Assembly (NCBI RefSeq): GCF_026162425.1
Contig: NZ_JAOBQJ010000003.1
Location: 620,001-684,000, forward strand
DNA: 64,000 bases
Direction of reading: 5' to 3'
From: Flexivirga meconopsidis
GTDB lineage: Bacteria; Actinomycetota; Actinomycetes; Actinomycetales; Dermatophilaceae
Shown one piece after another: positions 1 to 64,000 of this stretch. Each line of letters starts with the position of its first letter. The first letter of the stretch is position 1. The notes under the pieces were generated by a model that did not search any database, was not told where the DNA came from, and saw only the letters and a program-made list of their open reading frames with translations. Both the position numbers and the translations under genes were made by a program.

Positions 1-64
1 CGACGGCCTGCGGGGCGGCGAGGTTGTCGGGCGGCTGCTCGACATGCTGGCCGGGAAGGTATGA
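1..64 (+). CDS. 3' end of an unidentified protein (cut by window edge)
   Basis: An open frame enters at the left edge and ends at a TGA at 62-64. It gives a 20-residue tail, DGLRGGEVVGRLLDMLAGKV, with core-like codon use. The GEVVGRLL pattern resembles the last helix of zinc-type medium-chain alcohol dehydrogenases, but this is too short to name a family. It runs in the same direction as ispH, about 90 bp upstream of it. That the frame is coding is itself an inference. Confidence 0.35.
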   Translation, partial: DGLRGGEVVGRLLDMLAGKV

Positions 65-123
65 GCCGCGCACCTTCAGCGTGATTGCGGCGGCCACGAC
101 CGGTCTGCGCGACCGGCGCCGAT

Positions 124-150
124 TTGGGTGCGCCAGGTGACGCTTAGCAT
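124..150 (+). promoter_or_regulatory. Candidate ispH promoter, possibly leaderless
   Basis: A -35-like TTGGGT (124-129) and a -10-like TAGCAT (145-150) are 15 bp apart. The ispH ATG at 157 lies 7 nt after the -10 element, where transcription would be expected to start. There is no Shine-Dalgarno sequence between them, so a leaderless mRNA is plausible. This is inferred from spacing only. Confidence 0.35.
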
Positions 151-156
151 GGGTGC

Positions 157-1212
157 ATGACTTCCGTGCTCCCGACCGGCACCGACGACGCCGCCACCGG
201 CGGCACCGACGCGCCCGACGGCAAGCGGGTGCTGCTGGCCGCCCCGCGCGGCTACTGCGCCGGCGTCGATCGGGCCGTGGTCACCGTCGAGAAGGCACTC
301 GACCTCTACGGTCCGCCGGTCTACGTGCGCAAACAGATCGTGCACAACAAGCATGTGGTGACCACGCTGGAGAAGCGCGGCGCGATCTTCGTCGACGAAA
401 CCGACCAGGTGCCCGAGGGTGCGACGGTGATCTTCTCCGCGCACGGCGTGGCCCCCGTCGTACACGACGAGGCCAAGACGCTGTCACTGAAGACGATTGA
501 CGCGACCTGCCCGCTGGTGACCAAGGTGCACCGTGAGGCGCGCCGGTTCGCCGGCGAGGACTTCGACATCCTGCTGATCGGCCACGACGGCCACGAAGAG
601 GTCGTCGGCACCGCGGGCGAGGCACCGGAGAACATCATCCTGGTCGAGTCCCCGGATCACGTCGACGCGATCGAGGTGCGCGACCCAGAACGCGTCGTCT
701 GGCTCTCGCAGACCACGCTGTCGGTCGACGAGACGATGGAGACCGTGCGCCGGCTGCGCGAGCGCTTCCCCAAGCTGCAGGACCCGCCGTCGGACGACAT
801 CTGCTACGCCACCCAGAACCGCCAGCTGGCGGTCAAGCAGATGGCACCGGACACCGACCTGATGATCGTGGTCGGCAGCCGCAATTCCTCCAACTCGGTG
901 CGCCTGGTCGAGGTCGCGCTGGAGCACGGCGCCCGCGACGGGCACCTGGTCGACTACGCCGACGAGATCGACGAGTCGTGGCTCAACGGCGTGAACACGG
1001 TGGGCGTGACCTCCGGTGCGTCGGTGCCCGAGGTGCTGGTGCGTGACGTGCTGGACTTTCTTGCGCAGCGCGGTTACACCGACGTCGCGTCGGTCACCGC
1101 GGCCGAGGAGAGCCTGCTGTTCGCACTGCCGACCGAGCTGCGCCGCGACCTCAAGGCCCGCGGGTCCGACGACTCCGGCCAGGTCCGGCACGACGCGGGC
1201 TCACTGCACTAA
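157..1212 (+). CDS. ispH: 4-hydroxy-3-methylbut-2-enyl diphosphate reductase
   Basis: IspH (LytB) catalyses the last step of the MEP isoprenoid pathway, reducing HMBPP to IPP and DMAPP with a 4Fe-4S cluster. The 351-residue protein shows the three cluster cysteines in family context: GYCAG (C34), ATCPLV (C118) and CYATQN (C216). The SAHG motif and the SRNSSNS segment that binds the diphosphate are also present. About 20 extra residues precede the usual start of the fold, as in many actinobacterial homologues. The start is the ATG at 157, which has no ribosome binding site and a -10-like element 7 nt upstream. Its stop overlaps the convergent rmuC stop by 4 bp. Confidence 0.96.
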
Positions 1213-2408
1213 CCGGCTTCCTGCTCGCCGGCGCGACGATCGGTGTCCTGCTCGCCGAAGTCGAGCATCGGACGTGCGACGTCCTCGTCGAGCGCGTCGA
1301 TCAACTCCTGTGCGGTGAGCGGCCGGGTCGCCTTGTCGACCGGTGCCACCGGCGCGGCCGGTGCGTCGGTGACGACCCCGAGCGCGTGCAGCTTGCGCGC
1401 GGCGACGAACACCCGCGACTCCAGCGCCCCGACCATGGCGTTATAGGCCTCCACCGACTTGGTCAGGGACTGCCCCAGTGCGGTCGTATGGCGCCCCAGC
1501 GTGCCCAGCCGCTCGTAGAGCTGCTGGCCCAGCGCCAGCAACTCGCGGGTGCCGCGGACCAGGCTGTCCTGCTGCCAGGCGTAGGCGGTGGTGCGCAACA
1601 GCGCGAGCAGGCTGCCGGGGGAGACCAGCACCACCTTGCGGGCCATCGCTCGGTCCAGCAGCGACGGGTCCTGCCGCAACGCGGCGGCGAGCATCGCGTC
1701 GGCGGGCAGGAAGCAGACGACCATCTGCGGGGTGTCGACGAACGCGCTCCAGTAGTCCTTGGCGGCGAGACCGTCGACGTGTCGCACCAGCGCGCGAGCA
1801 TGGTCATCGAGCAGTTCGTCGCGCTCGGCCGGCGGCAGGTCGGCCGCCTGCGCGTCGAGGAACTTGCGGACCGGTGCCTTGCTGTCGACCACCAGCACTC
1901 GGTCGCCCGGAAGCCGCACCAGCACGTCGGGCCGGACCCGCGCGTCGTGCCTGCTCACCGCAGACACCTGCTCGTCGAAGTCGCAGTGCGGCAGCATGCC
2001 GGCGTGCTCCAGCACCCGTCGCAGCTGCACCTCACCCCAGGTGCCGCTGGTCGACGACGAGCGCAGCGCCCCGGCGAGTCCGCTTGTCTCCCGGTGCAAT
2101 TGGCCGGTCACCCGGCCGACCTCGGCCAGGCGCTCGCCGAGCTCGCCGAACTGCTCGACCCGGTCCCGCTCCAGCGTCGCCACCTGACGCTCCACCCGAT
2201 CGAGGGCGGCACCGAGCGGAGCCAGCACCGCGGCGGTCTGCTGGTCGTCGGCGACCGCCGACTCGAGGTCGACCACCCGCTCGCGCAGCAGGTCACGCTC
2301 GGTGCTGACCGCGACACTCCTGGCGGCATACACCTGGCGTAGCAGCAGCCAGCAGAGGCCGCCGGCGACGAACAGCCCGACGGCCAGACCGAGCAGGAAA
2401 GCGATCAT
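1209..2408 (-). CDS. rmuC: DNA recombination protein RmuC
   Basis: RmuC-family proteins are membrane-anchored, with a coiled coil followed by a PD-(D/E)XK-like domain. They were named for limiting recombination at inverted repeats. I start at the ATG at 2408 because the protein then opens with a transmembrane helix ([17 protein letters not shown]), as is usual for the family. A GTG at 2450 would add 14 residues with no structural benefit. Residues about 35-110 form the coiled coil. The conserved core follows, with [20 protein letters not shown] and a [10 protein letters not shown] segment. The product is about 399 residues. The gene ends head-on into ispH, the stop codons overlapping. Confidence 0.9.
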
Positions 2409-2460
2409 GCGGGCAGCCTGCCAAAGGGGTCTGACACCCGGTGCGCTCACACCGCCGAGG

Positions 2461-3453: not shown

Positions 3454-3495
3454 GAGTGCAGACTACGAGCAATCACCATTTAGACTCTTGACCTC

Positions 3496-4590
3496 GTGGC
3501 ACTCACCATCGGAATCGTCGGCCTGCCCAACGTCGGCAAGTCGACCATGTTCAACGCACTGACCAAGAACAACGTGCTCGCCGCGAACTACCCGTTTGCG
3601 ACGATCGAGCCCAACGTCGGCGTCGTGCCGATGCCCGACGAGCGCCTCGGCAAGCTCGCCGAGGTCTTCAAGTCGGAGAAGACAATCCCGGCGACCGTGT
3701 CGTTCGTCGACATCGCCGGCATCGTGCGCGGGGCGTCCGAGGGTGAGGGGCTGGGCAACAAGTTCCTGGCCAACATCCGCGAGGCCGACGCGATCTGTCA
3801 GGTGATCCGGGTCTTCAACGACGACGACGTGGTGCACGTCGACGGCAAGGTGTCGCCGGAGTCCGACATGGAGACGATCAATACCGAGCTGATCCTCGCC
3901 GACCTGCAAACCCTGGAGAAGGCGCTGCCGCGTCTCGACAAGGAGGTCAAGGGCAAGAAGACCGACAAGTCGGTGCTGGAGGCGGCGCAGGCCGCGCAGG
4001 CGATCCTCGAGGCCGGGGACACCCTCTTCGCCAAGGGTTTCGACGTGGCGCCGATCAAGGAGCTCGGGCTGCTGACGGGCAAACCGTTCCTCTACGTCTT
4101 CAACCTCGACGAGGACCAGTTGACCGACGAGGACCTCCAGGCGTCACTGCAGGCGCTGGTGGCACCCGCCGAGGCGATCTTCCTCAACGCCAAGCTCGAG
4201 ATGGACCTGACCGACATGTCCGACGAGGAGGCTCTGGAGATGCTGCAGGGCTTCGGCGCCACCGAGTCCGGCCTGAATCAGTTGGCGCACAAGGGTTTCA
4301 ACACCCTCGGACTGCAGACCTACCTGACCGCGGGCCCCAAGGAGACGCGGGCCTGGACCATCCGGCGCGGGTGGACGGCGCCGCAGGCGGCCGGCGTCAT
4401 ACACACCGATTTCCAGAAGGGCTTCATCAAGGCCGAGGTCATTTCGTATGACGACCTGGTCGCGCTCGGTTCAGTTGCCGAGGCCCGCTCGGCCGGCAAG
4501 GCGCGCATGGAGGGCAAGGACTACATCATGCAGGACGGGGACGTTGTGGAGTTCCGGCACGGAGGAACGTCGGGAAGCGGCAAGAAGTAG
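3496..4590 (+). CDS. ychF: Redox-regulated ATPase YchF (Obg-like ATPase)
   Basis: YchF is a universally conserved P-loop NTPase of the Obg family that binds ribosomes and prefers ATP. The P-loop GLPNVGKST is at residues 9-17. The usual NKxD guanine motif is replaced by NLDE (203-206), the hallmark of YchF's ATP preference. A C-terminal TGS domain runs from about 278 to 361 and includes the WTAPQAAGVIHTDF segment. Length (364) is typical. The start is a GTG. A -10-like TAGACT at 3481-3486 lies close upstream, so the leader would be very short. This is the last core gene before the defence island. Confidence 0.96.
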   Translation: MALTIGIVGLPNVGKSTMFNALTKNNVLAANYPFATIEPNVGVVPMPDERLGKLAEVFKSEKTIPATVSFVDIAGIVRGASEGEGLGNKFLANIREADAICQVIRVFNDDDVVHVDGKVSPESDMETINTELILADLQTLEKALPRLDKEVKGKKTDKSVLEAAQAAQAILEAGDTLFAKGFDVAPIKELGLLTGKPFLYVFNLDEDQLTDEDLQASLQALVAPAEAIFLNAKLEMDLTDMSDEEALEMLQGFGATESGLNQLAHKGFNTLGLQTYLTAGPKETRAWTIRRGWTAPQAAGVIHTDFQKGFIKAEVISYDDLVALGSVAEARSAGKARMEGKDYIMQDGDVVEFRHGGTSGSGKK

Positions 4591-4635
4591 GTTCCGTCTC
4601 TACTGAGCACGGCGAGCGACACGATAGAGGCGAAG

Positions 4636-6603
4636 ATGATCAGGGACGCGCACGAGGCCAACGAGACCGCGAGGCCGAACGACTTCGAGCTAACGCGACT
4701 GCGCGCCGCTCTGCCGGAGTACTTCGACAAGGACGGCGGCTTCATGCTCGACCGTCTCCAGGAGACCCTCCGCGACGGAGACGTGAATCTGAGCCGCGAG
4801 GGGTACGAGCTCAAGTTCCTGGGCAAGTCGTACGCGAAGTACTTGACGTCGACCAAGACAGAGACGGTCGTGGTGCCCGACATGGCGCACAACTCGGAGG
4901 ACGTGAACGCGGAATCCCAGAACCTGTACATTGTCGGCGACAACCTCGACGCGCTGAAGCACCTGATCGGTTCCTACAGCTCGCGGGTCAAGGCCATCTA
5001 CATCGACCCGCCCTACAACACCGGCAAGGACGGCTTCGTCTACAACGACGACTTCGGCTTCTCCGCGGCTGACCTGGTCAAGAAGATCGGGCTGGACGAG
5101 GACGAGGCCCGGCGCGTCACGGACCTTCACGGCAAGTCTTCCCACTCCGCGTGGTTGACCTTCATGTACCCGCGTCTCGAGCTCGCCAAGGAGCTGCTCG
5201 TGGACGAGGGCGTCATCTTCGTCAGCGTCGACGACAACGAGCAGGCCGATGTCCGGCTCCTGTGCGACGAGGTCTTTGGCGAAGGCAACTGGCTGGGCAC
5301 GCTCGTGTGGAAGAACGCGACGGACAACAACCCTTCGCAGATCGCGATCGAGCACGAGTACGTGCTCGCCTACGCGAAGTCTCGAGACGACCTCGCACCA
5401 GTGTGGAAGTCCGAGGTTTCGGCCACCAAAGAGCTGGTCATCGAGACCGGGGACCGGATCATCGACGAGTTCGAGGACGATGCTGCGCGCCAGAAGGCAT
5501 ACACGGCCTGGTTCCGCGAGAACAAGGGACAGCTTGGCCGCCTCGACGGCTACAAGTACATCGATGGCGACGGGGTGTATGCCGGCAGCCGTAGCGTCCA
5601 CAACCCGAACGGCGAGGGCTACCGCTACGACGTCCGGCATCCTGTCACGGGCAAGCCCTGCAAGCAGCCCCTCTTCGGGTACAGGTTCCCCGAGAGCACG
5701 ATGCAGCGACTTCTCGAGGAGGACCGCATCCTCTTCGGGAACGACGAGAACAAGATCGTCGAGCTCAAAGCTTATGTGCGTGACTACAGCGACTCGCTGG
5801 CGAGCGTCATCACATTGGATGGGCGCTCTGGAGCGAACGAGATCGTTGATCTGTTCGGTGAGAAGGTCTTCACGAACCCCAAGCCGAGCCGTTTCCTGTC
5901 GCAGATCCTCGACTTCGTCCTCGAGCCCGGCGACACCGTCCTCGACTTCTTCTCAGGATCCGCGACGACTGCTGATGCCGTCATGCAGCTCAATGCCCGT
6001 GACGGCGGCGATCGGCGCTTCATCCTCGTCCAGCTGCCCGAGCGGATCGAGGCCGGGAAGCCGGGGGCGAAGCAGGGTTACTCGACCATCGACGAGATCG
6101 GTCGGGACCGGATCAGGCGTGCCGCCGAGAAGATCCAGGGCGACGCGGGTGTGCAGATCGACGGCGGCTTCCGCCTGTTCCGTCTCGAGCAGCCGAGCCA
6201 GAAGACGCTCGACCAGCTCGAGTCCTTCGACGCCGATGAGACTCACGCCCTGCTCAGCGGCGACTTCGTCTCGAAGTTCGACCTCGCGGGGACGCCCGGC
6301 AAGGACGTCGTGCTCGCGACCTGGATGCTTGAGGACAAGGCCGGACTGACTGCAGCGGCCGAGTCAGTGCTCCTTGGTGACTACGAGCTGAGCGTCTCCG
6401 GCGACACCGGCTACGTCATCGACCCAGGCCTTGCCAGCGCAGACGTGCTCGAGCTCGTGTCCAAGCTGGAGAACGGCGACCTGGATCTGGACCGCCTGGT
6501 CGTCTTCGGCTACTCGGTCACCTTCTCGGTGATGCACGAGTTGAAGCAGAACCTGAAGTCGCTCAGGTCGGGACGCAAAGTGCCCGTCATCGAGCGGTTC
6601 TGA
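4636..6603 (+). CDS. mod: Type III restriction-modification DNA methyltransferase (Mod)
   Basis: Mod recognises the target site and methylates adenine on one strand. The 655-residue protein has beta-class motif order: the catalytic DPPYNTG (124-130) precedes the AdoMet-binding FSGSAT (439-444). The variable stretch between, about 240-420, should hold the target recognition domain, so specificity cannot be read here. The start ATG is preceded by GAGGCGAAG. The Res gene begins 2 nt after the stop. GTATGNC, common elsewhere, is rare here while GTACGNC is frequent, which argues for horizontal transfer. Confidence 0.93.
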   Translation: MIRDAHEANETARPNDFELTRLRAALPEYFDKDGGFMLDRLQETLRDGDVNLSREGYELKFLGKSYAKYLTSTKTETVVVPDMAHNSEDVNAESQNLYIVGDNLDALKHLIGSYSSRVKAIYIDPPYNTGKDGFVYNDDFGFSAADLVKKIGLDEDEARRVTDLHGKSSHSAWLTFMYPRLELAKELLVDEGVIFVSVDDNEQADVRLLCDEVFGEGNWLGTLVWKNATDNNPSQIAIEHEYVLAYAKSRDDLAPVWKSEVSATKELVIETGDRIIDEFEDDAARQKAYTAWFRENKGQLGRLDGYKYIDGDGVYAGSRSVHNPNGEGYRYDVRHPVTGKPCKQPLFGYRFPESTMQRLLEEDRILFGNDENKIVELKAYVRDYSDSLASVITLDGRSGANEIVDLFGEKVFTNPKPSRFLSQILDFVLEPGDTVLDFFSGSATTADAVMQLNARDGGDRRFILVQLPERIEAGKPGAKQGYSTIDEIGRDRIRRAAEKIQGDAGVQIDGGFRLFRLEQPSQKTLDQLESFDADETHALLSGDFVSKFDLAGTPGKDVVLATWMLEDKAGLTAAAESVLLGDYELSVSGDTGYVIDPGLASADVLELVSKLENGDLDLDRLVVFGYSVTFSVMHELKQNLKSLRSGRKVPVIERF

Positions 6604-6605
6604 CT

Positions 6606-9599
6606 ATGCAGATCCGCCTCCAGAAGCTCGAGCACCAGCAGCGCGCGCTCGATGCGCTGACACGCGTCTTCGCGGGCGTCGAGCTCGACTACAGCACCGC
6701 ATCCGAGTCGAACGTCTCCTTCGATCCGGCGGATCCGCAGATCGCCCACAACATCGCCGACATCCAGTCGGGCGTCATCGACGGGATCGAAGCGATTCCC
6801 CGCGCGTGGCGCGGCCGCACCGACGACGGCGTGCTCGGCGTCGACGCCAAGATGGAGACCGGCACCGGAAAGACGCTCGTGTACACGCAGTTGATGTATG
6901 AGCTCAACCGACTGTACGGCTTCACGAAGTTCATCGTCATGGTGCCGTCCACCCCAATCAAGGAGGGCACGAAGGCATTCATCCAGTCGGAGTACGCCGG
7001 CAAGTACTTCGCGGACGAGTACGGCGGACGGCAGATGCTGCACCTCGACGTGCTCGATCCTCAGAAGCGCTCCAAGGGGCGCAGGATGTTCCCGAGCGCG
7101 GTCGCCAGCTTCGTCCAGGGGTCGCGGCTCTCGCAAGGACGGATCTCAGCGCTGCTGATGACCGATGGCATGCTCCTGTCGCGGACGACGATGGCCGCCA
7201 ACTACGACCAGACCGTCCTGGGCACTGCGAGCGTCCCGTACGAGGCACTTCGCCGCACGCGCCCGATCGTGATCATGGACGAGCCGCACAGGTTCCGCCG
7301 TGAGAACAAGGCGTACCAGGCGCTCCTCGATGACATCCAGCCCTTGGCGATCTTCCGCTTCGGAGCGACGTTCCCCGAGTCTGACAAGAGCGGCAAGAAG
7401 GACTACAACAACCTCGTCTTCAACCTCGGGTCCGTCGAGGCGTTCAACGAGCAGCTGGTCAAGGGCGTCTCGATCCAGTACCCGGTCGACACGAGCGGCG
7501 ACACGACGAGGTTGACGCTGACGAGCCTGTCTGCCCGCAAGCCCAAGCAGGCGACGTTCAAGAACGTTGACACGGGGAAGGCCCATACATTCGACCTTGG
7601 GGAGTCGCTCGCCGTGACGGACGGCTCGTTCGCGGGGATCACGGTTGAATCGATCGGGAAGACCGAGCACCCGAGCATCAAGTCGGGCGTGACGCTCTCG
7701 AACGGCCAGGTGCTCGCAACCGGTGACACGCTCGCGGCCCGCGTCTATTCGGACACGTACCAGAGCCTGATGATGCAGCAGGCGCTGGAGAACCACTTCG
7801 AGGCGGAGTGGGAGAATTTCAGGCGCACGACCAGGGTCAAGACTCTGACCCTGTTCTTCATCGACTCGATCGATTCGTACCGCGGCGAGGCGGATGCAAG
7901 CGGCCATCTGCGACTCCGCTTCGAGGAGCTGCTTGCCGCCAAGCTGACCGCTGAGATCAGCAAGCGCAAGGACGATCGCTCGCCGATCGTTCAGGAATAC
8001 GTCGAGTATCTCGAGGCGTCCCTCGCCGATCTTCCGGCGACGAACGGCGGTTACTTCTCCGCGGACAACTCGACGTCCGACGAGGCCATCAAGGCCGAGG
8101 TCGACGACATCCTGCGCAACAAGGAGGCTCTGCTGTCGTTCCGTGGGCCGGATGGTGCGCCGAACACCCGACGCTTCCTCTTCTCCAAGTGGACCCTCCG
8201 GGAGGGCTGGGACAACCCGAACGTCTTCCAGATCGTCAAGCTGCGGTCGTCGGGCTCCGACATCTCGAAGCTCCAGGAGGTAGGGCGAGGTCTGCGACTC
8301 CCGGTCGATGCGCGCGGCACGCGCCTGGCCGGCGAGCAGTTCTACCTCACCTACCTCATCGACTACACAGAGCGATCGTTCGCCGAGTCCTTGGTCACAG
8401 AGATCAACGCCGACGCGGCGGCCGGGCCAGTGCCTATCAAGGAGCTCCTCCCCAAGGTCGCGGCCGAGCTCGGCAAGACCGAGACGGAGCTGTTCATCGA
8501 GCTGCTCCAGGCGGGCCTCGTCGACTCGGACAAGAACGTCGTGCCAGGTCGCGAAGACGATCTGTACGCCGCGTATCCGGCGTTCAACAAGACGGCGCTG
8601 AAGCCGGGAAAGGTCGTGAAGCCCGACCAGAAGGTCAAGGTCGGGATCCGTGCCGAGCGGTACCAGGAGCTCAAGGAGCTCTGGGAGACGATCAACGCGA
8701 AGTACTACTTGCGCCTGGACGACCTCTCGGCGGAAGAGATCGATTCATGCATCGATGCGATCCTCGGCAACGGGATCTACCGGCCCATGGTCGGTCGCTT
8801 CGCCCAGGACACGATCGTCAGGAGCGAGGAGCTGGGACTCGAGGTCCAGACCGAGACGAAGCGGATATTCGATGTCACCGCGACGATCCCGTACGGCGAC
8901 TGGCTCAAGCTCGCGCACGCGCAGACCCATCTTCCGATCGATCGGATCCACGCAGGCCTCGTGCGTCAGAACTCGAGGGCGGCGCTCAAGAGCGACTTCT
9001 TCAACAAGGCGAGCCTCGGCGAGTTCGTGGCGAAGTTCACCGAATGGATGGAACGGACGTTCCTGACCCGATTCTCTTACACGCGGATCGACGGGCTCGT
9101 GAGCGGCACCACTCTCACCGACGCCGAGGGCAAGCCGCTCGAGAGCATCGTCCAAGGCAACATCGGCGTGCTGCGCGATGACACGGCGAAGGTGCCCGAG
9201 AAGTACCTCTACGATGCCTTCGTCTACGACTCGACCAAGGAGCACGACACGATCCGGGACTCGAAGCTCGATGAAGTCGTGGTCTTCGGCAAGATTCCGC
9301 GCAGCTCCTTCACCGTCCCTCTCTATTTCGGAGGCACGACGAGCCCCGACTTCATGTACGTGCTCAGGCGCGACGACGGCAAACTCTCGCTCAACTTCGT
9401 GGTCGAGACGAAGGACGTGGAGAAGAGGTCCGACCTGCGGGAGAGCGAGCAGCTTCGCATGAAGGCGGCGAGGCAGTTCTTCGAGTCCATGAGCTCGGAG
9501 TCCTTCGACGTCACGTTCCGGCCCCAGGTGAAGCGCGAGGAGATCGCCGTGATGATCAAGCAGCTCCTAAGCGACGGAGAAGGACAGGCGCAGGAGTGA
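6606..9599 (+). CDS. res: Type III restriction endonuclease subunit (Res)
   Basis: Res is the ATP-dependent partner of Mod, switching or translocating along DNA and cleaving when two unmethylated sites meet. The 997-residue protein has Walker A METGTGKT (83-90) and Walker B/DExH DEPH (225-228). A superfamily 2 helicase C-terminal region contains LREGWDNPNVFQI and LQEVGRGLRLPV. A C-terminal PD-(D/E)XK nuclease has D915 and E934-x-K936 (FVVETKD). All key residues are present, so the enzyme looks intact. It starts 2 nt after mod and its stop overlaps the next gene's GTG. Confidence 0.93.
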   Translation: MQIRLQKLEHQQRALDALTRVFAGVELDYSTASESNVSFDPADPQIAHNIADIQSGVIDGIEAIPRAWRGRTDDGVLGVDAKMETGTGKTLVYTQLMYELNRLYGFTKFIVMVPSTPIKEGTKAFIQSEYAGKYFADEYGGRQMLHLDVLDPQKRSKGRRMFPSAVASFVQGSRLSQGRISALLMTDGMLLSRTTMAANYDQTVLGTASVPYEALRRTRPIVIMDEPHRFRRENKAYQALLDDIQPLAIFRFGATFPESDKSGKKDYNNLVFNLGSVEAFNEQLVKGVSIQYPVDTSGDTTRLTLTSLSARKPKQATFKNVDTGKAHTFDLGESLAVTDGSFAGITVESIGKTEHPSIKSGVTLSNGQVLATGDTLAARVYSDTYQSLMMQQALENHFEAEWENFRRTTRVKTLTLFFIDSIDSYRGEADASGHLRLRFEELLAAKLTAEISKRKDDRSPIVQEYVEYLEASLADLPATNGGYFSADNSTSDEAIKAEVDDILRNKEALLSFRGPDGAPNTRRFLFSKWTLREGWDNPNVFQIVKLRSSGSDISKLQEVGRGLRLPVDARGTRLAGEQFYLTYLIDYTERSFAESLVTEINADAAAGPVPIKELLPKVAAELGKTETELFIELLQAGLVDSDKNVVPGREDDLYAAYPAFNKTALKPGKVVKPDQKVKVGIRAERYQELKELWETINAKYYLRLDDLSAEEIDSCIDAILGNGIYRPMVGRFAQDTIVRSEELGLEVQTETKRIFDVTATIPYGDWLKLAHAQTHLPIDRIHAGLVRQNSRAALKSDFFNKASLGEFVAKFTEWMERTFLTRFSYTRIDGLVSGTTLTDAEGKPLESIVQGNIGVLRDDTAKVPEKYLYDAFVYDSTKEHDTIRDSKLDEVVVFGKIPRSSFTVPLYFGGTTSPDFMYVLRRDDGKLSLNFVVETKDVEKRSDLRESEQLRMKAARQFFESMSSESFDVTFRPQVKREEIAVMIKQLLSDGEGQAQE

Positions 9600-10416
9600 C
9601 TTCGTCGAAGCCACCGCAGCCGCCTTGGTCCTACTCGGTCCTGCAGTCGGTCGCGGTGGTGCTCGCTGACACGAACGACGGGTTGAAGGGGACCGAGATC
9701 GGCGACCTCCTGTCGCGCCTGGACATGCAGGACCCGCTTCCTGACGCGACCAAGCGGGTCCTGCCTCGCCGAGGCCTTCGTCGTGGCGCAGAACCGATTC
9801 GGCAATCCGAGGCGGATCATCACCTTCATCGTCACGGCGATGGAGCCCGTGCGGTATCGGAACGACCTCGAGCTGTTCACACTGCGCCAGGATCGGCTCA
9901 ACGAGCATCTTGCCTTCGTTGGGCTCCGCGTCAACGACAAGGGTCAGGTCGCCCAAGGGGCGAAGGCGCAGACGCTCGACGAGGCGTCGCGCGTCGCGAC
10001 ATCGATCCGCGACGAGCTGCTGCGCCGCAAGTCCCACCCCGAGGTGCTCAAGTACTGCTCGGTCGAGATCCTGAAGAAGGACCACTTCCACGCCTGCCTT
10101 GAGGCAACGAAGAGCGTCTTCGATCGGCTGCGGATCCTCACCGGTGCCTCCGGCGACGGTGCCGCGCTCGTCGACGCCACGCTGGCACTGGGCAAGTCGG
10201 GCGTGCCGATGCTCGCCATCAATTCGCTGGCGACCCACCGAGCGGGACGAGCAGACGGGGCTCGCGAACCTCGTCAAGGGAATGAACGGGCTTTATCGGA
10301 ATCCGACGGCGCATGACCCCCGCCTGAGGCGTGCGATCAGCGACGACGAGCTCCTCGAGGTCCTGACGATGGTCTCGATGGTCCATCGTCGGCTCGACGG
10401 CGCGCATCTGACCTGA
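9596..10416 (+). pseudogene. TIGR02391/Ymh family HEPN-like protein, split by two frameshifts
   Basis: Three overlapping frames join into one protein of about 270 residues. The N-terminal part runs from the GTG at 9596. A shift near 9755-9768 leads into LAEAFVVAQNRFGNPRRIITFI. A second shift near 10220-10230 leads into TERDEQTGLANLVKGMNGL and on to the TGA at 10416. Both shifts are in the same (+1) sense. The C-terminal block ends with RNPTAH (10297-10313), which fits the Rx4-6H motif of HEPN ribonucleases and the TIGR02391 (Ymh) family as I know it. The GTG overlaps the res TGA (GTGA), so this is the third gene of the restriction operon. Sequencing error is an alternative to decay. Confidence 0.72.
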
Positions 10417-10422
10417 TCGCCT

Positions 10423-11124
10423 TCAACCCTGCGGCTCCTCCAGGTGGTCGCCGCGCCTGAACGACTCGGACGCTCCGCGCCACTCCTCGGGGTGCGAGAT
10501 CGGCAGGAGCCTGTGCTGCTGCGCGTGGGTGCTGTCGTACGGCGTCGATGCGTCGAGCTTCATCCGGCTGTGGTCCTTGATGAGCAGCATCTCGACGACC
10601 CGTGCCGCGGTCTGCAGGTCCTCGGCGATCCTTCCGGATGCGACATCAGCGGGGGAGTGGACCGCCTGGCCGTCCTCGTCGAGGTCAACGTAGAACCCCG
10701 CCATCTTCTCCTGGTTGGCTCGTGCACCCGCGGCTTCGGCATCGCTCGTCTGCTGGGCGAAGTAGGCGTCCCAGCTCTCCTGCCTGTCGTCCTGCGGGTA
10801 GTCGTAGGACTCGTAGTCGCCCCAGAACGCTGCGAGCTCCTTCCCGAATACGAAGGCCTCCATGTACTTGACCGCATGCCGGCGGCCATCGCTGGCGAGC
10901 CTCGGGACCGCGAGCGCATCATCGGCACCCGTGCTCCAGGACTCCTCGAAGGTCTCGTAGAGCCAGAGGGCCTTGCCCAGCTCCTCCTGCGCAAGGACCG
11001 TGAGCGAGCGGGCCCGGCCGAACGAACTGGTCTTCAGCAGCGCGTGGGCGTCGGCGACCAGGCTCGACGCGTTGTCCATCAGCGCCTTCCAGAACGTGCG
11101 CGCAGTGCTCGGCGTCATCTCCAT
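10423..11124 (-). CDS. AbiV-like HEPN abortive-infection protein
   Basis: The 233-residue protein begins with a helical region. Its residues about 30-58 contain FGRARSLTVLAQEELGKALW, matching the A-EE-GKA signature of the AbiV/HEPN_AbiV family. In lactococci AbiV blocks phage translation. Residues 60-140 are acidic and rich in Tyr and Trp, and a second conserved block (EDLQTAARVVEMLLIKDHSRMK) follows. I see no clear Rx4-6H motif, so ribonuclease activity is uncertain. It is convergent with the TIGR02391 gene, only 6 bp separating the stops, and adds to the defensive character of the island. The start ATG is at 11124; an ATG two codons in is possible. Confidence 0.7.
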   Translation of the reverse strand: MEMTPSTARTFWKALMDNASSLVADAHALLKTSSFGRARSLTVLAQEELGKALWLYETFEESWSTGADDALAVPRLASDGRRHAVKYMEAFVFGKELAAFWGDYESYDYPQDDRQESWDAYFAQQTSDAEAAGARANQEKMAGFYVDLDEDGQAVHSPADVASGRIAEDLQTAARVVEMLLIKDHSRMKLDASTPYDSTHAQQHRLLPISHPEEWRGASESFRRGDHLEEPQG

Positions 11125-11261
11125 GAATCGATTCTGCCCTGGGCCACGGACAGTCGTGGGCCCTCGCGGTCGCCGCCGCCGTCACGCACCTCCGCACACG
11201 CAGCTCGAACTGACCACCGACGAGCCCGGGCGATAGAGCGGTGCGAAGGCCCCGCTACCGT

Positions 11262-11683
11262 GGATAGGCGGTTGACCCTCGCCGTTGCGCTCGACACGAC
11301 GCCCGTCGAGCTCCTCTCCTTCGTGCCCGCCGACGCGCCCCCTGCCTGACTGCGTTCTCGCGACCGCGGTGCCCTGAGACGTCGACCAGGCCGAGCTGCG
11401 GGCCTGGCTCGAGGGCATGACGGGGCTCGACTACGCCTCCCGTCAGCGCTGGGCACAGGACCGTGTCCAGCGCCTCGAGATCCGTTCCCCGCGCGTGGAG
11501 GACCAGCTGCAGGCCGCGTACGAAGAGCTGCGCGACCTCGGCGAGCTGGCCGACCAGGAAACCGACGCGATGCCCGTGATCCGCCTCCACGACTGCATCC
11601 AGACCGGTGACTACGACCTCAGCCAGGTCAACGTCGCATTGGCCTATGCCGAGCAGCGGCTCGGGTGGCTGCAGGGGGAGTAG
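11262..11683 (+). pseudogene. Remnant of an XRE-type regulator
   Basis: One frame reads RRLTLAVALDTTPVELLSFV and stops at 11349. A second frame continues with LPDCVLATAVP, a TGA at 11375-11377, then DVDQAELRAWLEGMTGLDYA to the stop at 11683. The order matches the C-terminal half of actinobacterial XRE/HTH regulators, where LAVALD..P closes the helix-turn-helix domain and DxxELRAWL follows. The helix-turn-helix itself is missing, and one frameshift plus one nonsense codon interrupt the rest. A free-standing 88-residue protein from the ATG at 11417 is possible but lacks an obvious ribosome binding site. Confidence 0.5.
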
Positions 11684-11724
11684 TTCGACCGTGCCGGCAG
11701 GGGATCCCATGCCAAGATCGGGGC

Positions 11725-12279
11725 ATGGACATCGTCGCGCTGGTGATCTCGGCCCTATCCCTGGTCGTCGCCGGCGTCGGCACCTTCCAGGCGAACCGTC
11801 GGGCGAAAGAGGCGCTGGACGAGTCCCGGTCGGCGGCGGCCGATGCGCGCTGGTCCGCCGCGCAGGAGGCAGTGCAGCATCTGATCGGCTTCGATCCCAC
11901 GGCCGAGCCTGTCGATCAGCGTCTCGTGAACCTCCGCATCGCCCTGATCGGTCTCGTGGATCATCTGGACGGATGGGAAGGCCTCGACGCCTGGCTGGAA
12001 GCAGAGCGGACGCTGGGCGCGACCTTCGCCCGCGAGCTGATGGACGCTGCCAGGCACGGCGACGGCGTCGAGCAGCGCGTGAACAACCTCATGCCCCTGA
12101 TGAGCTGGGCCCAGGCGCTGAGCCACAACCTCCGGCGCTTCCGCTCCGTCGGGCACGACCGGCAGTCTCTGGCGGCCCTCGAGGCGAACGCGCTGGCCCT
12201 CGTCAAGGAGGTCCATGCACGCCACGGCTGGGAGCTGCCTCCGGCGACGAATCCTCGCCTGGAGGAGCTCGACAACTAG
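11725..12279 (+). CDS. Hypothetical protein with N-terminal membrane helix
   Basis: This protein of 184 residues is not recognised as a named family. From the ATG at 11725 it opens with a membrane segment (MDIVALVISALSLVVAGVG). A short basic stretch and a helical soluble domain follow, with AVQHLIGF, LRIALIGLVDHLDGW and MSWAQALSHNLRRF. The N-out, soluble-inside layout resembles small actinobacterial membrane proteins found in accessory regions. An upstream in-frame ATG at 11665 would place a basic, cysteine-containing stretch before the membrane helix, so I reject it. It lies between the decayed XRE gene and the HigBA module. Its role is unknown. Confidence 0.6.
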   Translation: MDIVALVISALSLVVAGVGTFQANRRAKEALDESRSAAADARWSAAQEAVQHLIGFDPTAEPVDQRLVNLRIALIGLVDHLDGWEGLDAWLEAERTLGATFARELMDAARHGDGVEQRVNNLMPLMSWAQALSHNLRRFRSVGHDRQSLAALEANALALVKEVHARHGWELPPATNPRLEELDN

Positions 12280-12396
12280 AGTCGGGAGCGGACCGGTGCA
12301 CATGGCGTCCTCAGCCGTGGCGACGTCTGCGAGTGGCGGCACTCAAGAGGATAAGGATGCCGTTCCTAACCGTGGCGACGTGGTGGAGTTCCGGTT

Positions 12397-12431
12397 TAAC
12401 GTATAGCGTTATTGACGTTCCCCGTTATAAA
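12397..12431 (+). promoter_or_regulatory. higBA promoter with palindromic operator
   Basis: A perfect inverted repeat TAACG-TATAG-CGTTA occupies 12397-12411. A strong -10-like TATAAA lies at 12426-12431, 7 nt before the higB GTG. The palindrome would cover the -35 region, the expected place for autorepression by a HigA-type antitoxin. The distance suggests a leaderless higB message. Confidence 0.5.
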
Positions 12432-12438
12432 TGGGTTC

Positions 12439-12720
12439 GTGATCAGATCGTTCGGCGACAAGGAGACCGAACGGTTGTGGCGCCGTGAGCGCGTGCGCTC
12501 GATCGATCCGAGGATCCATCGGGTCGCACTGCGCAAGCTTCGTCAGGTGGGATCAGCGGAGTCCCTCGATGACCTCCGCATCCCACCCGGCAACCGGCTC
12601 GAAGTGCTCAAGGGTGATCGGGCCGGGCAGCACAGCATCAGGATCAACGACGAGTGGCGGATCTGTTTCATGTGGACGGACGCCGGACCGGAGGAGGTGG
12701 AGATCGTTGACTACCACTGA
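12439..12720 (+). CDS. higB: HigB-type toxin (RelE/ParE superfamily mRNA interferase)
   Basis: HigB toxins cleave mRNA on the ribosome. The 93-residue product from the GTG at 12439 (VIRSFGDKETERLW...) matches the length and sequence of HigB-1 proteins, including RIPPGNRLEVLKGDRAGQHSIRI, the INDEWRICF core and the closing VEIVDYH. An ATG at 12412 would add nine residues but overlaps the TATAAA element, so GTG is preferred. It is followed by higA with an overlap, the toxin-first order typical of this family. Confidence 0.9.
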   Translation: MIRSFGDKETERLWRRERVRSIDPRIHRVALRKLRQVGSAESLDDLRIPPGNRLEVLKGDRAGQHSIRINDEWRICFMWTDAGPEEVEIVDYH

Positions 12721-13009
12721 CAAGATTGCCCCGATCCACCCGGGAGAGGTCCTCATGGAGGACTTCATCGAGGGCTTCGGGATCACGCAGAACAAGCTCG
12801 CGGTCTCGATCGGAGTGCCACCCCGCCGGATCAACGAGATCGTGCACGGCAAGCGGGGGATCACTGCGGACACTGCGCTGCGGCTCGCGAAGTACTTCGG
12901 GACGTCGGCGGAGTTTTGGATCAACCTGCAGAGCCATTACGAGCTGGACCGTGCCGAGGAAATCGCTGGGGAGCAGATCGCGTCGATCACGCCGCTGGAC
13001 GTGGCGTGA
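12707..13009 (+). CDS. higA: HigA-type antitoxin (XRE/HTH)
   Basis: HigA neutralises HigB and represses their shared promoter. The 100-residue protein reads IAPIHPGEVLMEDFIEGFGI, then a helix-turn-helix (TQNKLAVSIGVPPRRINEIV) and the HGKRGITADTALRLAKYFG block standard for HigA. The likely start is a TTG at 12707. It is chosen because a strong GGAGGAGGTGGA ribosome binding site ends about 6 nt upstream and no ATG or GTG is in range. It overlaps the end of higB by 14 bp, implying translational coupling. Confidence 0.92.
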   Translation: MTTTDKIAPIHPGEVLMEDFIEGFGITQNKLAVSIGVPPRRINEIVHGKRGITADTALRLAKYFGTSAEFWINLQSHYELDRAEEIAGEQIASITPLDVA

Positions 13010-34149: not shown

Positions 34150-35694
34150 TCAGACGCCGGCGAGCTCGGGTCGCTCCTCGGGCAGGTCGCCGGACGGTTC
34201 GGCGACGTGGCCGGCAGCCCCGCGGCGCGGGCGGATCAGCAGGAGGGCGAGCAGACCGCCGACCAGGCCGAGCACCCCGGAGATCAGCGCGGTGAGGCGC
34301 AACCCGTCGACCGCCGCCAGGTGAATCGTGTGGTCCGCTGCCTGGCGCGCTGCAGCCGGCACCTGCGCGAGCACGAGTCCGGACTGCCCACCGGCCACCG
34401 CGTCGCCGGCTCGCGACGCGTCCGGCACGGACTGTGACGAGAGCACCGAGGTGATGCGCGCGGCGAAAACCGTGCCGAGCGCGGCGATCCCGAGCGCGAA
34501 CCCGAGCTGGCGCGCGGTGTTGACCGCGCCCGCCGCCATACCGCCCTTGTGCATCGGCACCGCGGACATCGCGGTCGAGCTGAGCGTCGGTGCGGCAAGC
34601 CCGACGCCGATGCCGGACACCAGCAGGCCGGGCACCAGCGCGACCCAGGTGGCGCCCGCGCCGTTCAACTGCCAGGCGACCAACAAGCCGCCGACGCCGG
34701 TCAGTGCGATGCCGAGGCCGACCGCCAGCCAGTTGCGGCGGCCGTGCATCAGCCGGCCGACGCTGGCACTGGTCGCGAACGAGGCGCCGGCGAGCGGGAG
34801 CGAGGCCAGACCGGCCTCGACCGGAGACATGCCGCGCACCGACTGCATCCAGATCGAGGCGTAGGTCAGATAGGCGAATGCGCCTGCGGTCAGGACGAAT
34901 CCGGCGATCAGCGAACCCACGAACGGCCCGTTGCGCAGCAGCCCGAGGTCGAACATCGGGTGCCGCAACCTCGCCTGGGCCACCACGAAGCCGATCAGCG
35001 CGAGCGCCGACAGGACGAACGAGCCGATCACCACGGCGTTGCCCCAGCCGTCCTCGTTGGCTCTGATCAGCGCGTAGGTGAGCGCACCCGCGAAGACCGT
35101 GAAGGTCGTCATGCCGACGAAGTCGAGCGGGGTCTTGTGCCGCTCGTCGCGCGCGAGCACCACGAAGCACAGCACGATCGCCGCGATCGCGAATGGCAGG
35201 TTGACGAAGAAGATCCAGCGCCAGGACAGGTGCTCGGTGAGCAGGCCGCCGGCGATCGGGCCGACCGCTGCGGCAGCACCCGAGACCGCACCCCAGATGC
35301 CGTATGCCGTGCCCCGGTCGCGTCCGTGATAGCTGGTGTTGAGCAGAGCGAACGTGGTGGCGAACATCGCGGCCGCACCGACGCCTTGCACCCCGCGGGC
35401 GGCGATCAGCACCGTGTCGTTGCCGGCCAGCCCGCTCGCCGCCGAGGCGAGTGCGAAGAGCGCGAGGCCCACGACATACGTGGCACGGTGACCGAGCCGG
35501 TCGGCCAGCGAACCGATGCCGAGCAGCAGCGCGGCAAGCACCAGCGCGTAGATGTCGACCACCCACTGCAGGGAGGTGAAGGTGGTGTGCAGACCGGATG
35601 CCATGTCGGGTAGCGCGACGTTCACGATCGTGACGTCGACGAGCAGCATGAGCGTGCCGGTGCAGATGGTGACCAGAGGCAGCCACTTGCGCAT
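34150..35694 (-). CDS. MFS drug exporter, DHA2 (EmrB/QacA) family
   Basis: This 514-residue protein has about 14 predicted membrane helices. Motif D1 is TLMLLVDVTIVNVALP at the first helix, motif A is GSLADRLGHRATYV, motif B is IAARGVQGVGAAAMF and motif C is AYGIWGAVSGAAAAVGPIAG. Such proteins export drugs with proton antiport; the substrate is unknown. It is divergent from an Lrp-type regulator across 150 bp, the typical place for its control. Confidence 0.88.
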   Translation of the reverse strand: MRKWLPLVTICTGTLMLLVDVTIVNVALPDMASGLHTTFTSLQWVVDIYALVLAALLLGIGSLADRLGHRATYVVGLALFALASAASGLAGNDTVLIAARGVQGVGAAAMFATTFALLNTSYHGRDRGTAYGIWGAVSGAAAAVGPIAGGLLTEHLSWRWIFFVNLPFAIAAIVLCFVVLARDERHKTPLDFVGMTTFTVFAGALTYALIRANEDGWGNAVVIGSFVLSALALIGFVVAQARLRHPMFDLGLLRNGPFVGSLIAGFVLTAGAFAYLTYASIWMQSVRGMSPVEAGLASLPLAGASFATSASVGRLMHGRRNWLAVGLGIALTGVGGLLVAWQLNGAGATWVALVPGLLVSGIGVGLAAPTLSSTAMSAVPMHKGGMAAGAVNTARQLGFALGIAALGTVFAARITSVLSSQSVPDASRAGDAVAGGQSGLVLAQVPAAARQAADHTIHLAAVDGLRLTALISGVLGLVGGLLALLLIRPRRGAAGHVAEPSGDLPEERPELAGV

Positions 35695-56132: not shown

Positions 56133-56176
56133 CCTCCCCGCCCGCCCCACCACCTGCATACCCACCCAGCTCCAAC

Positions 56177-56240: not shown

Positions 56241-56281
56241 GTCGTATCTACCTGCCGGAAAGACCGTCGGGCTCGCGCATG

Positions 56282-57235: not shown

Positions 57236-57304
57236 CCGCGCATGTTTGCACTCGGTCGCGTCGTGGCCCGGACTCTATCCACAGGCAGCTGGCATCCCTG
57301 CTGA

Positions 57305-58433: not shown

Positions 58434-58545
58434 GGCGGCATACTAGGCGAGCGTGTGCAACGTAGCCGGGCAGTCGCTTCGCGCCTGACCAGCTGCTTCG
58501 CACGTCATCGCTCGCATATCCGTCAAGCAGGAGGACCCGTTCGTC

Positions 58546-58869: not shown

Positions 58870-58875
58870 CCTCGC

Positions 58876-59982: not shown

Positions 59983-59992
59983 CGCCGGGGTC

Positions 59993-60005
59993 GCCCCGAA
60001 GGGGC
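59993..60005. terminator. Short hairpin after dapC
   Basis: GCCCC-GAA-GGGGC forms a 5-bp stem 11 bp after the dapC stop. There is no T tract. It may weaken read-through into gltA. A -10-like TAACGT at 60020-60025 just after it could serve gltA. Confidence 0.35.
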
Positions 60006-60081
60006 AGGTGACTCTGCGGTAACGTCGAAAGCGCTGACTTCTCCGGCATCGGAGCCGGTAACCACGAAGGACGGAAAGCAC

Positions 60082-61377
<1,296 letters not shown>

Positions 61378-61398
61378 GCGGCCCTGCTTTTAGAACGG

Positions 61399-61430
61399 AA
61401 GGCCCCGATTCCTTTGGGAATCGGGGCCTT
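61399..61430. terminator. Strong hairpin terminator between gltA and lipase genes
   Basis: AAGGCCCCGATTCC (61399-61412) and GGAATCGGGGCCTT (61417-61430) form a perfect 14-bp stem with a TTTG loop, followed by TTTC. It lies 22 bp after the gltA stop and 18 bp beyond the convergent lipase stop, so it can end both transcripts. Confidence 0.9.
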
Positions 61431-61448
61431 TCGCATGCTCGCCGTTGC

Positions 61449-62372: not shown

Positions 62373-62542
62373 GAGTGACCCTTCATCGACGTGAGACAGG
62401 TCACTCCAGGTTAGCTACTTTTGGGTAAGTTGTGTCTCAATTGGGTGGCAGGCCAGTGAGGTGGGCGTCCGGCATGCGGCGAGCTTTACGCACGATTTGC
62501 CATTCTGAGTATTTCCTGGGAGTAGGCCGGTACATTTCGCTC

Positions 62543-63181
62543 ATGACCCCCTTCACCCGCCGCATAGCGGTGACCGTTGCCATAACCGCGTCACTGGCGC
62601 TCGCGGGGTGCAATGGCGACACTGCAACGAACGATGGCGGCACCGTCACAAAGACCGTTACAGCAGGCGCCGCTCCGGAGTCAGCGGCGACCGACTCGTC
62701 CGAGAGTCCGATCGTCGAGGGTGCCGAGGACGGAGTCGTCGGTGCTTCGTCGGACTCGGCCTCGGGGACGGTGGATGCCGGTTCATCGGGGACCGTCGCA
62801 TTTGGAGCGACTTACACATCACCTACTGGGCGCACTATCTCTATCGGAAAAGGAGCGCCCTACACGCCAGGCGAATCGGCTTATGTTGGAGACAACGTGC
62901 CCGCGGGCGCGAAGTATCGGAAGTTTGAGGTAACGCTCGTTAACAAGAGCGCTGCCCCATTCGACACCAATGACCTCTACTTCACAGCCACGGCGGGGGA
63001 CCGCGAGGTGGGAATGGTGACGGACGTGGAGGCTGGTATCGACACGCCAACGTCTACGATGCTCCCAGGCCGCACCTTGAGGTTCTTCCTTGCGTATCCC
63101 GTCGTCGTCGGGCAACCGCTAACTATTGCGGTGAACACGGTCGATGGGCCGGTTGCTACCTGGGACGGTGTCACGAGCTGA
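62543..63181 (+). CDS. Hypothetical lipoprotein (possible DUF4352-like)
   Basis: A 212-residue protein with lipobox LAGC (C23) and an acidic, Ser/Ala-rich linker (about 30-95). A beta-rich domain (about 100-212) follows, with KYRKFEVTLVNKSAAPFDTN, MLPGRTLRFFLAYPVV and LTIAVNTVDGPVATWDG. The last part resembles DUF4352-type domains that bind ligands outside the cell, but I am not certain. The DNA is visibly richer in A and T than its neighbours and has no GTATGNC, hinting at transfer. The ATG at 62543 is used because it opens the signal peptide. Confidence 0.7.
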   Translation: MTPFTRRIAVTVAITASLALAGCNGDTATNDGGTVTKTVTAGAAPESAATDSSESPIVEGAEDGVVGASSDSASGTVDAGSSGTVAFGATYTSPTGRTISIGKGAPYTPGESAYVGDNVPAGAKYRKFEVTLVNKSAAPFDTNDLYFTATAGDREVGMVTDVEAGIDTPTSTMLPGRTLRFFLAYPVVVGQPLTIAVNTVDGPVATWDGVTS

Positions 63182-63202
63182 TTGCGCGACTGAGCGCTCC
63201 CG

Positions 63203-64000
63203 CTATTTCGGCTGCGCCAGGTCGATCCGCACGGCGTTGACGCCTGAGGTCGCCCGCTTGGCGTTCTGCCACTTCCAGCCGTCCTTGCCGCGGTGCCGTT
63301 CCCAGGCGCGGTCGCCGACGGTGACGGTCTGGATGCCGTCGGCGTCGGCGTGGGCGACCGCCCAGGAGGCGACTGCCCAGGCGGTCGCGGTGTTGGCGCC
63401 GGTGAAGGTGACCGAGCCATCGCCGGGACGCGCGACGAGCGCGCTCTGCGCCTGCAGTTCGGTGACGACCTGCGCCGGTGTCTTCGCCGACTTGGCGGGG
63501 TCGAGCCGGCAGCCCACACCCTCCGTGGCGGTCCCGGCCATCACCGCGGTGATCGTCTCGCCTTGCGTCTCGTGGTCGTTGTAGGCATCGGGATAGCCGC
63601 TGCGCTGCACCTCCTGCGCGGCGGCGCCGATGGACAGCGACTGCCACTCGGGGATCTTGGTCAGCGCGTTGTAGAACGAGCCGCTGGCGTAGATCGGGTC
63701 CTGGATCTGGTCCGCGGTGCCCCAGCCCTGGCTGGGGCGCTGCTGGAACAGCCCCAGTGAGTCGAGGTCGCCGTAGGTCAGGTTGCGCAGCTTCGACTCT
63801 TGCAGCGCGGTCGTCGTCGCGACGGTCGCCGCGCGGGCGGGCAGTCCCTTCTTGAAGACGCCGACGTCGACGATCGTCGAGGCGTTCGCCGTCTGCTCCG
63901 GATCCCACTGGTAGTCAAAGCCGTTCGCGACCACTTTGCACGAGGGCGAGCCGAAGTTGTTGACGAGGTGCTGGTATGCCGCGTAGCCGCCATACGCGAT
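63203..64000 (-). CDS. Secreted lysozyme-like protein, N-terminus beyond window
   Basis: A partial protein: 265 residues up to the TGA are visible and the frame continues past 64000. The visible part begins IAYGGYAAYQHLVNNFGSPS. It has an actinobacterial lysozyme-like/SLT core: PARAATVATTTALQESKLRN, then GDLDSLGLFQQRPSQGWGTA with the ESK glutamate in a catalytic-like position, then AAQEVQRSGYPDAYNDHE. Annotations of these proteins vary; a cell-wall hydrolase fold is the best inference. The C-terminal 60 residues look like a separate small domain (AVASWAVAHADADGIQTVTV). Confidence 0.75.
   Translation of the reverse strand: MAYGGYAAYQHLVNNFGSPSCKVVANGFDYQWDPEQTANASTIVDVGVFKKGLPARAATVATTTALQESKLRNLTYGDLDSLGLFQQRPSQGWGTADQIQDPIYASGSFYNALTKIPEWQSLSIGAAAQEVQRSGYPDAYNDHETQGETITAVMAGTATEGVGCRLDPAKSAKTPAQVVTELQAQSALVARPGDGSVTFTGANTATAWAVASWAVAHADADGIQTVTVGDRAWERHRGKDGWKWQNAKRATSGVNAVRIDLAQPK

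What the first reader, a model, noticed from the sequence alone, without database searches (positions are those of the whole stretch)
1..64000. Heptamer GTATGNC is strongly favoured and GTACGNC avoided across the core genome, but not in the defence island
By eye I count about 95 GTATGNC sites (both strands) outside 4.6-13.0 kb and only about 18 GTACGNC there. Base composition alone would predict the opposite order. Between 4.6 and 13.0 kb it is about 2 against 7-8. The sites occur in every reading frame (Tyr-Asp as TATGAC, Gly-Met-Ala as GGTATGGCG, and rare Ile ATA in GTCATACC) and equally on both strands, so codon preference is not the cause. Possible causes are deamination of a methylated C in GTA-C-GNC, avoidance of a restriction site, or a selected binding site for a chromosome-wide protein. 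The island's different ratio suggests recent arrival.
Basis: partly seen in the sequence, partly recalled or inferred. Interest (0 to 1): 0.82.

Follow-up and report, generated by a model that had tools for sequence, protein, structure and literature searches.

The report
Genome-wide directional DNA signal, possibly Chi-like
An actinobacterium and many of its relatives carry thousands of copies of one short DNA word (GTATGNCG), placed so that each strand has its own evenly spaced series, which suggests a direction-sensitive signal, perhaps the 'stop degrading, start repairing' sign for their DNA-break repair enzyme.

Summary
The enrichment is real and stronger than reported; the 'avoidance' half is wrong. 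The true word is GTATGNCG: 96 of 100 GTATGNC are followed by G; 97 copies in the window, 5745 in the 4.28 Mb genome against 961 for the reversed word. GTACGNC is not avoided. The genome groups with Flexivirga. 77 of 148 family genomes carry at least 800 copies, with dialects; 22 genomes of other families show no clear excess. On the 750 kb contig the word overrides codon choice in all six frames. Key new result: same-orientation copies repel each other below about 1 kb, opposite ones do not, so neighbours alternate (679 of 1061, z 9.2; also in other genera). That points to a direction-sensitive, DNA-level reader. RecBCD and a shared methyltransferase are unlikely. Best guess: a Chi-like signal read by AdnAB, found in all 34 genomes searched; it is unproven, and the replication polarity of known Chi is missing. 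The defence island (1 copy, 12-15 expected) is absent from four congeners.

The parts
1..64000 (.). Array of 97 GTATGNCG octamers on both strands (96 outside the island)
4446..4453 (+). GTATGACG site inside the ychF GTPase gene (3496-4590), the nearest site upstream of the island
5577..5584 (+). The only GTATGNCG in the island (GTATGCCG, in the Type III mod gene); the GTATGCC near 5496 on - is followed by T and does not fit
4600..13000 (.). Motif-poor, lower-GC (0.645 against 0.685) defence island absent from four congeners
4636..6603 (+). Type III restriction-modification methyltransferase (Mod) in the island; not the source of the motif
6606..9599 (+). Type III restriction enzyme (Res) in the island
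34150..35694 (-). Ordinary gene (MFS transporter) with three sites of alternating orientation: 34535 -, 35302 +, 35473 -
60082..61377 (+). Citrate synthase gene with two sites of opposite orientation (60603 -, 61353 +)

Best explanation
GTATGNCG is a selected, direction-sensitive DNA signal that the cell keeps on each strand every one to two kilobases of its own chromosome. It most likely works like Chi: a helicase-nuclease that eats in from a double-strand end meets the word on one strand, only in one orientation, and switches from degradation to recombination. Because both ends of a two-ended break need a correctly oriented copy, each orientation is spaced evenly and independently of the other. 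The most likely reader is AdnAB, the end-processing motor of actinobacteria. Shown: the enrichment, the near-absence from the island, codon override, turnover with density roughly kept, dialects, and orientation-specific self-avoidance at DNA level.
For: Same-orientation pairs at 10-500 bp: 188 observed, about 368 expected; opposite-orientation pairs 411 against about 367 (P 4e-20 for 188 against 411). Neighbours are opposite in 679 of 1061 cases on C4 (z 9.2), 447 of 733 in four congeners (z 5.9; much of this sequence is orthologous to the window, so it is not independent) and 463 of 750 in other genera (z 5.9). A null that respects the protein sequences gives z 1.6 +/- 0.9, maximum 3.95 in 200, against 7.1 for the coding sites. 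Protein-compatible sites are realised at 0.50 of expectation when a same-orientation copy lies 12-100 bp away, rising to 1.2-1.4 beyond 1 kb; with opposite copies the ratio is 1.2 near by and falls with distance. In genes on opposite strands DNA orientation still rules (32 opposite, 10 same, P 0.0009), so it is not an RNA signal. 141 of 257 ATA and 347 of 899 TAT codons of the C4 genes lie inside the word. Sites are kept more often than same-composition words (64/91 against 1289/2579 in the closest congener; P 0.0002, 5e-6, 1e-5 and 0.03 in the four) while positions turn over. AdnA and AdnB lie at C4:716966-723429 and match mycobacterial AdnAB chains at E 3e-150 and 3e-202. PDDEXK_1 hits occur in 34 of 34 genomes, as an adjacent pair in 33; in G062 the pair is not seen on one contig. 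In 27 relatives aligned, both genes are at least 97% covered without stops, except AdnA of G166 (58%), whose contig ends there. Whether AdnAB answers to Chi is given as unknown or unclear in print (PMC4824097, PMC13309787; passages).
Against: Known Chi sites are polarised along the replichores; here 562 + against 500 - on a contig with mostly positive GC skew (P 0.06), and 103706 against 103904 over 77 genomes on arbitrary strands. AdnAB is also intact in genomes with few copies (G005, G014, G018, G104), so its presence does not predict the word. Overall evenness of coding sites alone (2 kb variance/mean 0.89) is only at the edge of the protein-aware null (mean 1.04, lowest 0.88), so the firm part is the orientation effect. 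Single small samples such as G015 and G026 show no alternation. PMC8022716 warns that candidate Chi words in GC-rich genomes, Actinobacteria named, are prone to false positives (passages). No binding or resection data exist. I had no sequence with which to check whether true Chi or true uptake sequences show the same orientation effect.
Confidence: 0.45

Rival explanations
1. A DNA uptake sequence of natural transformation in a monoderm lineage, with a direction-sensitive receptor so that each copy serves DNA on one side only.
For: Dense, both orientations equal, even, poor in the island, turning over, with lineage dialects, as recalled for Neisseriaceae and Pasteurellaceae; ComEC (PF03772) in 147 of 148 family genomes, in the window's genome next to a gene that looks like comEA by eye.
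Against: Haemophilus uptake is reported not to depend on the orientation of the sequence (PMC1939737, passages); an orientation-blind receptor predicts equal repulsion of opposite copies, which is absent. Type IVa pilus marker PilM in only 4 of 148; Tad/Flp pili were not searched. ComEC is also present in motif-poor genomes. G058 has 2596 copies and no ComEC hit, but its assembly is in 760 contigs.
Confidence: 0.2
2. A strand-specific site of another DNA-level machine, such as a nicking or strand-marking enzyme for repair, or an orientation-sensitive nucleoid protein.
For: Independent series on the two strands is what strand-specific nicking or marking would need; strand choice in mismatch repair of actinobacteria that lack MutS/MutL is not settled (recalled).
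Against: No candidate protein was looked for or found; a nucleoid protein would more likely space both orientations together.
Confidence: 0.22
3. A HIP1-like iterated word created or kept through a DNA methyltransferase.
For: HIP words in cyanobacteria are frequent, lineage-variable and tied to methyltransferases (PMC4390886, abstract and outline).
Against: The word is not a palindrome. Two of the 24 motif-rich genomes tested, G011 and G059, have no hit to any of PF01555, PF02384, PF00145, PF07669. Other methyltransferase families were not tested.
Confidence: 0.06
4. Methyl-C deamination or restriction avoidance turning GTACGNC into GTATGNC.
For: GTACGNCG is enriched in a relative, G092 (33 against 12.9 expected), so the T/C position does vary.
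Against: GTACGNCG is not depleted; a one-way mutation does not give orientation avoidance.
Confidence: 0.02

Closest known systems
Chi sites of RecBCD/AddAB (E. coli GCTGGTGG; Caulobacter GCGGTGGT)
   Same: Asymmetric octamer, over-represented in the core genome, read in one orientation
   Different: Not polarised along the replichore here, six to seven times denser than the one per 5 kb given for E. coli (PMC8022716, passages), RecC lacking in 51 of 77 motif-rich genomes, reader unproven
DNA uptake sequences (DUS of Neisseriaceae, USS of Pasteurellaceae)
   Same: Thousands of copies, both orientations, lineage dialects
   Different: Shorter word, orientation-specific spacing, host without outer membrane (recalled), no uptake data
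HIP1 and alternate HIPs of cyanobacteria
   Same: Highly iterated octamer of uncertain purpose, replaced by variants in some lineages
   Different: HIPs are palindromes tied to methyltransferases; this word is not a palindrome and no shared methyltransferase was found among four families
KOPS/SRS of FtsK/SpoIIIE (recalled)
   Same: Asymmetric octamer with orientation meaning
   Different: KOPS point to the terminus; this word has no clear replichore bias

Membership tests
Chi | Short asymmetric word over-represented in the core genome | tested here: met
   core against foreign tested on one island
Chi | Acts in one orientation only | tested here: inconclusive
   Indirect: orientation-specific self-avoidance
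Chi | Polarised with respect to replication | tested here: not met
   562/500 on C4, P 0.06; one contig, leading strand inferred from GC skew
Chi | Genome encodes a RecBCD or AddAB type reader | tested here: inconclusive
   RecC in 26 of 77 motif-rich and 39 of 71 other genomes; AdnAB-type PDDEXK_1 hits in 34 of 34; AddAB not searched separately
Chi | Attenuates the nuclease and raises recombination | not testable with these tools
   needs biochemistry
DNA uptake sequence | Dense in both orientations with dialects between lineages | tested here: met
DNA uptake sequence | Reader indifferent to orientation, so that spacing ignores it | tested here: not met
   indifference of uptake from PMC1939737
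DNA uptake sequence | Competence machinery present | tested here: inconclusive
   ComEC in 147 of 148; PilM in only 4 of 148; other parts not searched
DNA uptake sequence | Raises DNA uptake | not testable with these tools
   needs uptake assay
HIP | Palindrome | tested here: not met
   sequence itself
HIP | Cognate methyltransferase in motif-rich genomes | tested here: not met
   G011 and G059 lack the four methyltransferase families searched; other families not tested
KOPS | Orientation bias toward the terminus | tested here: not met
   562/500 on C4, P 0.06

The most novel reading that the evidence does not exclude
GTATGNCG and its dialects are the Chi sites of AdnAB: a self-recognition and recombination signal for the actinobacterial helicase-nuclease, kept on both strands because most breaks there are two-ended, and evolving in dialects with its reader across the family.
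Probability: 0.4. Interest if true: 0.92.

Novelty: new variant of a known kind. Interest (0 to 1): 0.82.

Why it matters
Whether AdnAB has a Chi is described as not known in 2016 and the matching step as unclear in 2026 (PMC4824097, PMC13309787; passages). This gives a named word, a named genus, a predicted orientation rule and natural dialects with which to test it. In either case it shows a DNA-level signal strong enough to hold over half of the ATA codons in the predicted genes of a 750 kb contig, a warning for codon-usage work. Orientation-resolved spacing is also a cheap test for polar function of any iterated word.

Tried and rejected
RecBCD as reader: RecC is missing from 51 of 77 motif-rich genomes. 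Methyltransferase/HIP model. Type IVa pilus: PilM in 4 of 148. Gene content around comEC in 20 loci: compared only with the genes of G000, by eye; no G000 gene was confined to motif-rich genomes in a clear way. A broken comEC in G166: not shown, its contig ends there. Near-miss avoidance of GTATGNTG (0 against 21 expected): the whole xTATGNTG group is rare, so dropped. Transcript-level signal: rejected by pairs in opposite-strand genes. Hairpin-type inverted pairs: 35 adjacent pairs lie within 30 bp (28 of them inverted) and no fixed spacing stands out. GGACGNCG in G014 as an alternative word: enriched but no alternation. Reading all motif gaps as foreign DNA: not borne out; ten genes from the larger gaps other than the island gave regulators, metabolic enzymes, an ABC transporter and secY, and no mobile-element hallmark. 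Literature: GTATGNCG and CGNCATAC occur in 0 papers of the held library; searches for overrepresented motif plus uptake sequence plus Actinobacteria (0 papers) and for the family names with motif terms (10 of 973 listed) gave nothing on it in what was listed.

Limits of the tests: genes were called by my own GC-frame script, not a standard caller. The 236 control words have z mean -0.37, sd 1.90; their maximum of 9.23 is apparently the motif itself, and other words can deviate the other way (GGATGNCG z -4.4). Dialects in G024, G028, G092 and L072 rest on 21-68 kb each. The congener sample is largely orthologous to the window. The methyltransferase and PDDEXK_1 searches covered 34 chosen genomes, not all 148.

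Full report
What was claimed and what is there. The window holds 101 GTATGNC and 32 GTACGNC; between 4.6 and 13.0 kb it is 2 against 9. In 96 of the 100 copies with enough flank the next base is G, so the unit is GTATGNCG with a free sixth base: 97 copies, against 0-33 for each one-base neighbour. The genome (10 contigs, 4,283,908 bases) has 2913 forward and 2832 reverse copies, one per 746 bases, and 961 of the reversed control word. On contig C4 (750,316 bases) 1062 of 1181 GTATG lie in the word.

Where it comes from. Named relatives of the window's ychF gene put the genome with Flexivirga (NCBI lists it under Dermacoccaceae, and the wider family name Dermatophilaceae that I use is recalled from GTDB). 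The five genomes of the genus have 5019-8019 copies, while 22 genomes of other families of the order have at most 436 copies and at most about 2.4 times the control word. Among 148 family genomes, 77 have at least 800 copies. On a ychF+lytB tree of 56 rows the 17 motif-rich rows (rounded density 4 per 10 kb or more) need eight changes, fewer than in any of 500 shuffles, and all lie in one supported clade of 33 rows, which fits an old trait lost or altered several times.

Dialects. Flexivirga, G007, G008 and Arsenicicoccus L057 leave base six free; in G011, G021, G025, G026 and the Knoellia loci it is nearly always C, and in G015, L047 and L063 mostly C. Knoellia loci L051, L054 and L084 favour T after the word, L078 favours C, Serinicoccus L090 favours G before it and G011 C before it (12-29 sites for most of these). 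Genomes that looked empty can have a variant: GTATGCG in G024 (15 against 2.6 expected) and Nostocoides L072 (12 against 0.8), CGTACGCC in G028 (36 against 12.8), GTACGNCG in G092 (33 against 12.9). The last two are weaker. In G005, G014, G018 and G104 I saw no clear variant of this word.

It is selected, not mutational. With synonymous codons shuffled on C4, all six frames are enriched 4.6- to 31-fold. Tyrosine is TAT in 347 of 431 cases in the exact context and in 8.5-28% elsewhere; isoleucine is ATA in 141 of 374 against 1-2%. Of 2460 positions where the protein allows the word, 921 have it. One-base neighbours are not systematically drained: GTACGNCG is at 1.56 and GTAGGNCG at 1.98 of expectation, while several GTATGN-type neighbours are low, in line with general rarity of TATGN contexts. 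Copies are slightly denser between genes (1.68 per kb) than in them (1.35).

Conservation with turnover. In the closest congener (88% identity) 64 of 91 aligned sites are kept against 1289 of 2579 for words of the same composition; in the three others 31/57, 34/66 and 20/47 against 25-28%. Fisher P 0.0002, 5e-6, 1e-5, 0.03. Aligned totals are similar in the three far congeners (57/62, 66/70, 47/48) and lower in G004 (69 against 91). So density rather than place is held.

Spacing and orientation. Copies are more even than any of 111 control words in 1, 2 and 5 kb bins (variance/mean in 2 kb 0.67; controls 1.16, lowest 0.93); at 10 kb 2 controls and for the gap CV 1 control are as even. For coding sites alone the 2 kb value is 0.89, at the edge of a protein-aware null (mean 1.04, lowest 0.88 of 200). 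Split by orientation, same-orientation pairs occur at 0.43-0.74 of expectation below 600 bp and reach 1 between 1 and 1.5 kb, whereas opposite pairs stay at 0.89-1.13, with 1.38 in the first 100 bp. Neighbours alternate in 679 of 1061 cases. The effect recurs in pooled congeners (largely orthologous sequence) and in pooled other genera, though single small samples (G015, G026) show no alternation. Protein-aware thinning reproduces only a small part (z 1.6 +/- 0.9 against 7.1). Pairs in genes on opposite strands follow DNA orientation. The simplest reading is a reader that sees the word in one direction on the DNA, and a benefit that saturates within about a kilobase on each strand.

Which reader. 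RecC: 65 of 148 genomes, more often in motif-poor ones (39 of 71) than in motif-rich ones (26 of 77). DNA methyltransferases: no family of four tested is in all 24 motif-rich genomes searched, and G011 and G059 have none. Competence: ComEC almost universal, PilM rare. AdnAB: PDDEXK_1 hits in all 34 genomes searched, sequence matched to mycobacterial AdnAB, full length in 26 of 27 relatives aligned, the other cut by a contig end. AdnAB is thus allowed, not proven; being present throughout, it cannot be tested by presence and absence. Passages in PMC4824097 and PMC13309787 say that Chi control of AdnAB is not known. PMC5443536 (passages) shows an orientation-dependent Chi effect for Caulobacter AddAB, the experiment to copy. 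PMC8022716 (passages) used polarity as a criterion for Chi, found that a small part of Proteobacteria have a recognisable one, and warns of false positives in GC-rich genomes; the present word would fail its polarity criterion. I therefore say that it works like a Chi, not that it is one.

The island. 4.6-13.0 kb has one copy where 12-15 are expected, lower GC, and no match in four congeners. It carries a Type III restriction-modification pair, a PD-Lambda-3 B-like protein, an AbiV HEPN protein and a helix-turn-helix protein. Its methyltransferase is the only PF01555 hit of the genome, and G003 and G004 have none, so it cannot explain a genus-wide word.

Confidence. That the word is real and selected: 0.97. 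That its function is direction-sensitive and at DNA level: 0.85. That it is a Chi-like end-processing signal read by AdnAB: 0.45.

Noticed in passing
window 4600-13000: Defence island behind ychF: Type III Mod/Res, PD-Lambda-3 B-like protein, AbiV HEPN protein, HTH protein; no tRNA found in the window.
   Followed up: partly
L052 (Janibacter anophelis), L203 (G062), L208 (G161): A different word, CGAAGGGG, is about 7-fold over synonymous expectation in all three (15, 10 and 9 copies). It may be these lineages' own iterated signal.
   Followed up: partly
L129-L130, L196, L229 (G014): The palindrome GGACGTCC (34 against 4.9) and CGGCGTCC (43 against 12.7) are enriched, without orientation alternation for GGACGNCG.
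   Followed up: partly
window: AAGTACTT (8 against 0.2 expected), GAAGTAC and TTGCGCA are also well above the Markov expectation.
   Followed up: no
C4 548414-552068 (L028): A motif gap of 3.7 kb runs into secY, a core gene, so highly expressed genes may also shun the word's rare codons (the reason is a guess).
   Followed up: partly
L152-L153 (G025): AACNACAA is enriched almost wholly in one orientation, which looks like a local repeat.
   Followed up: no
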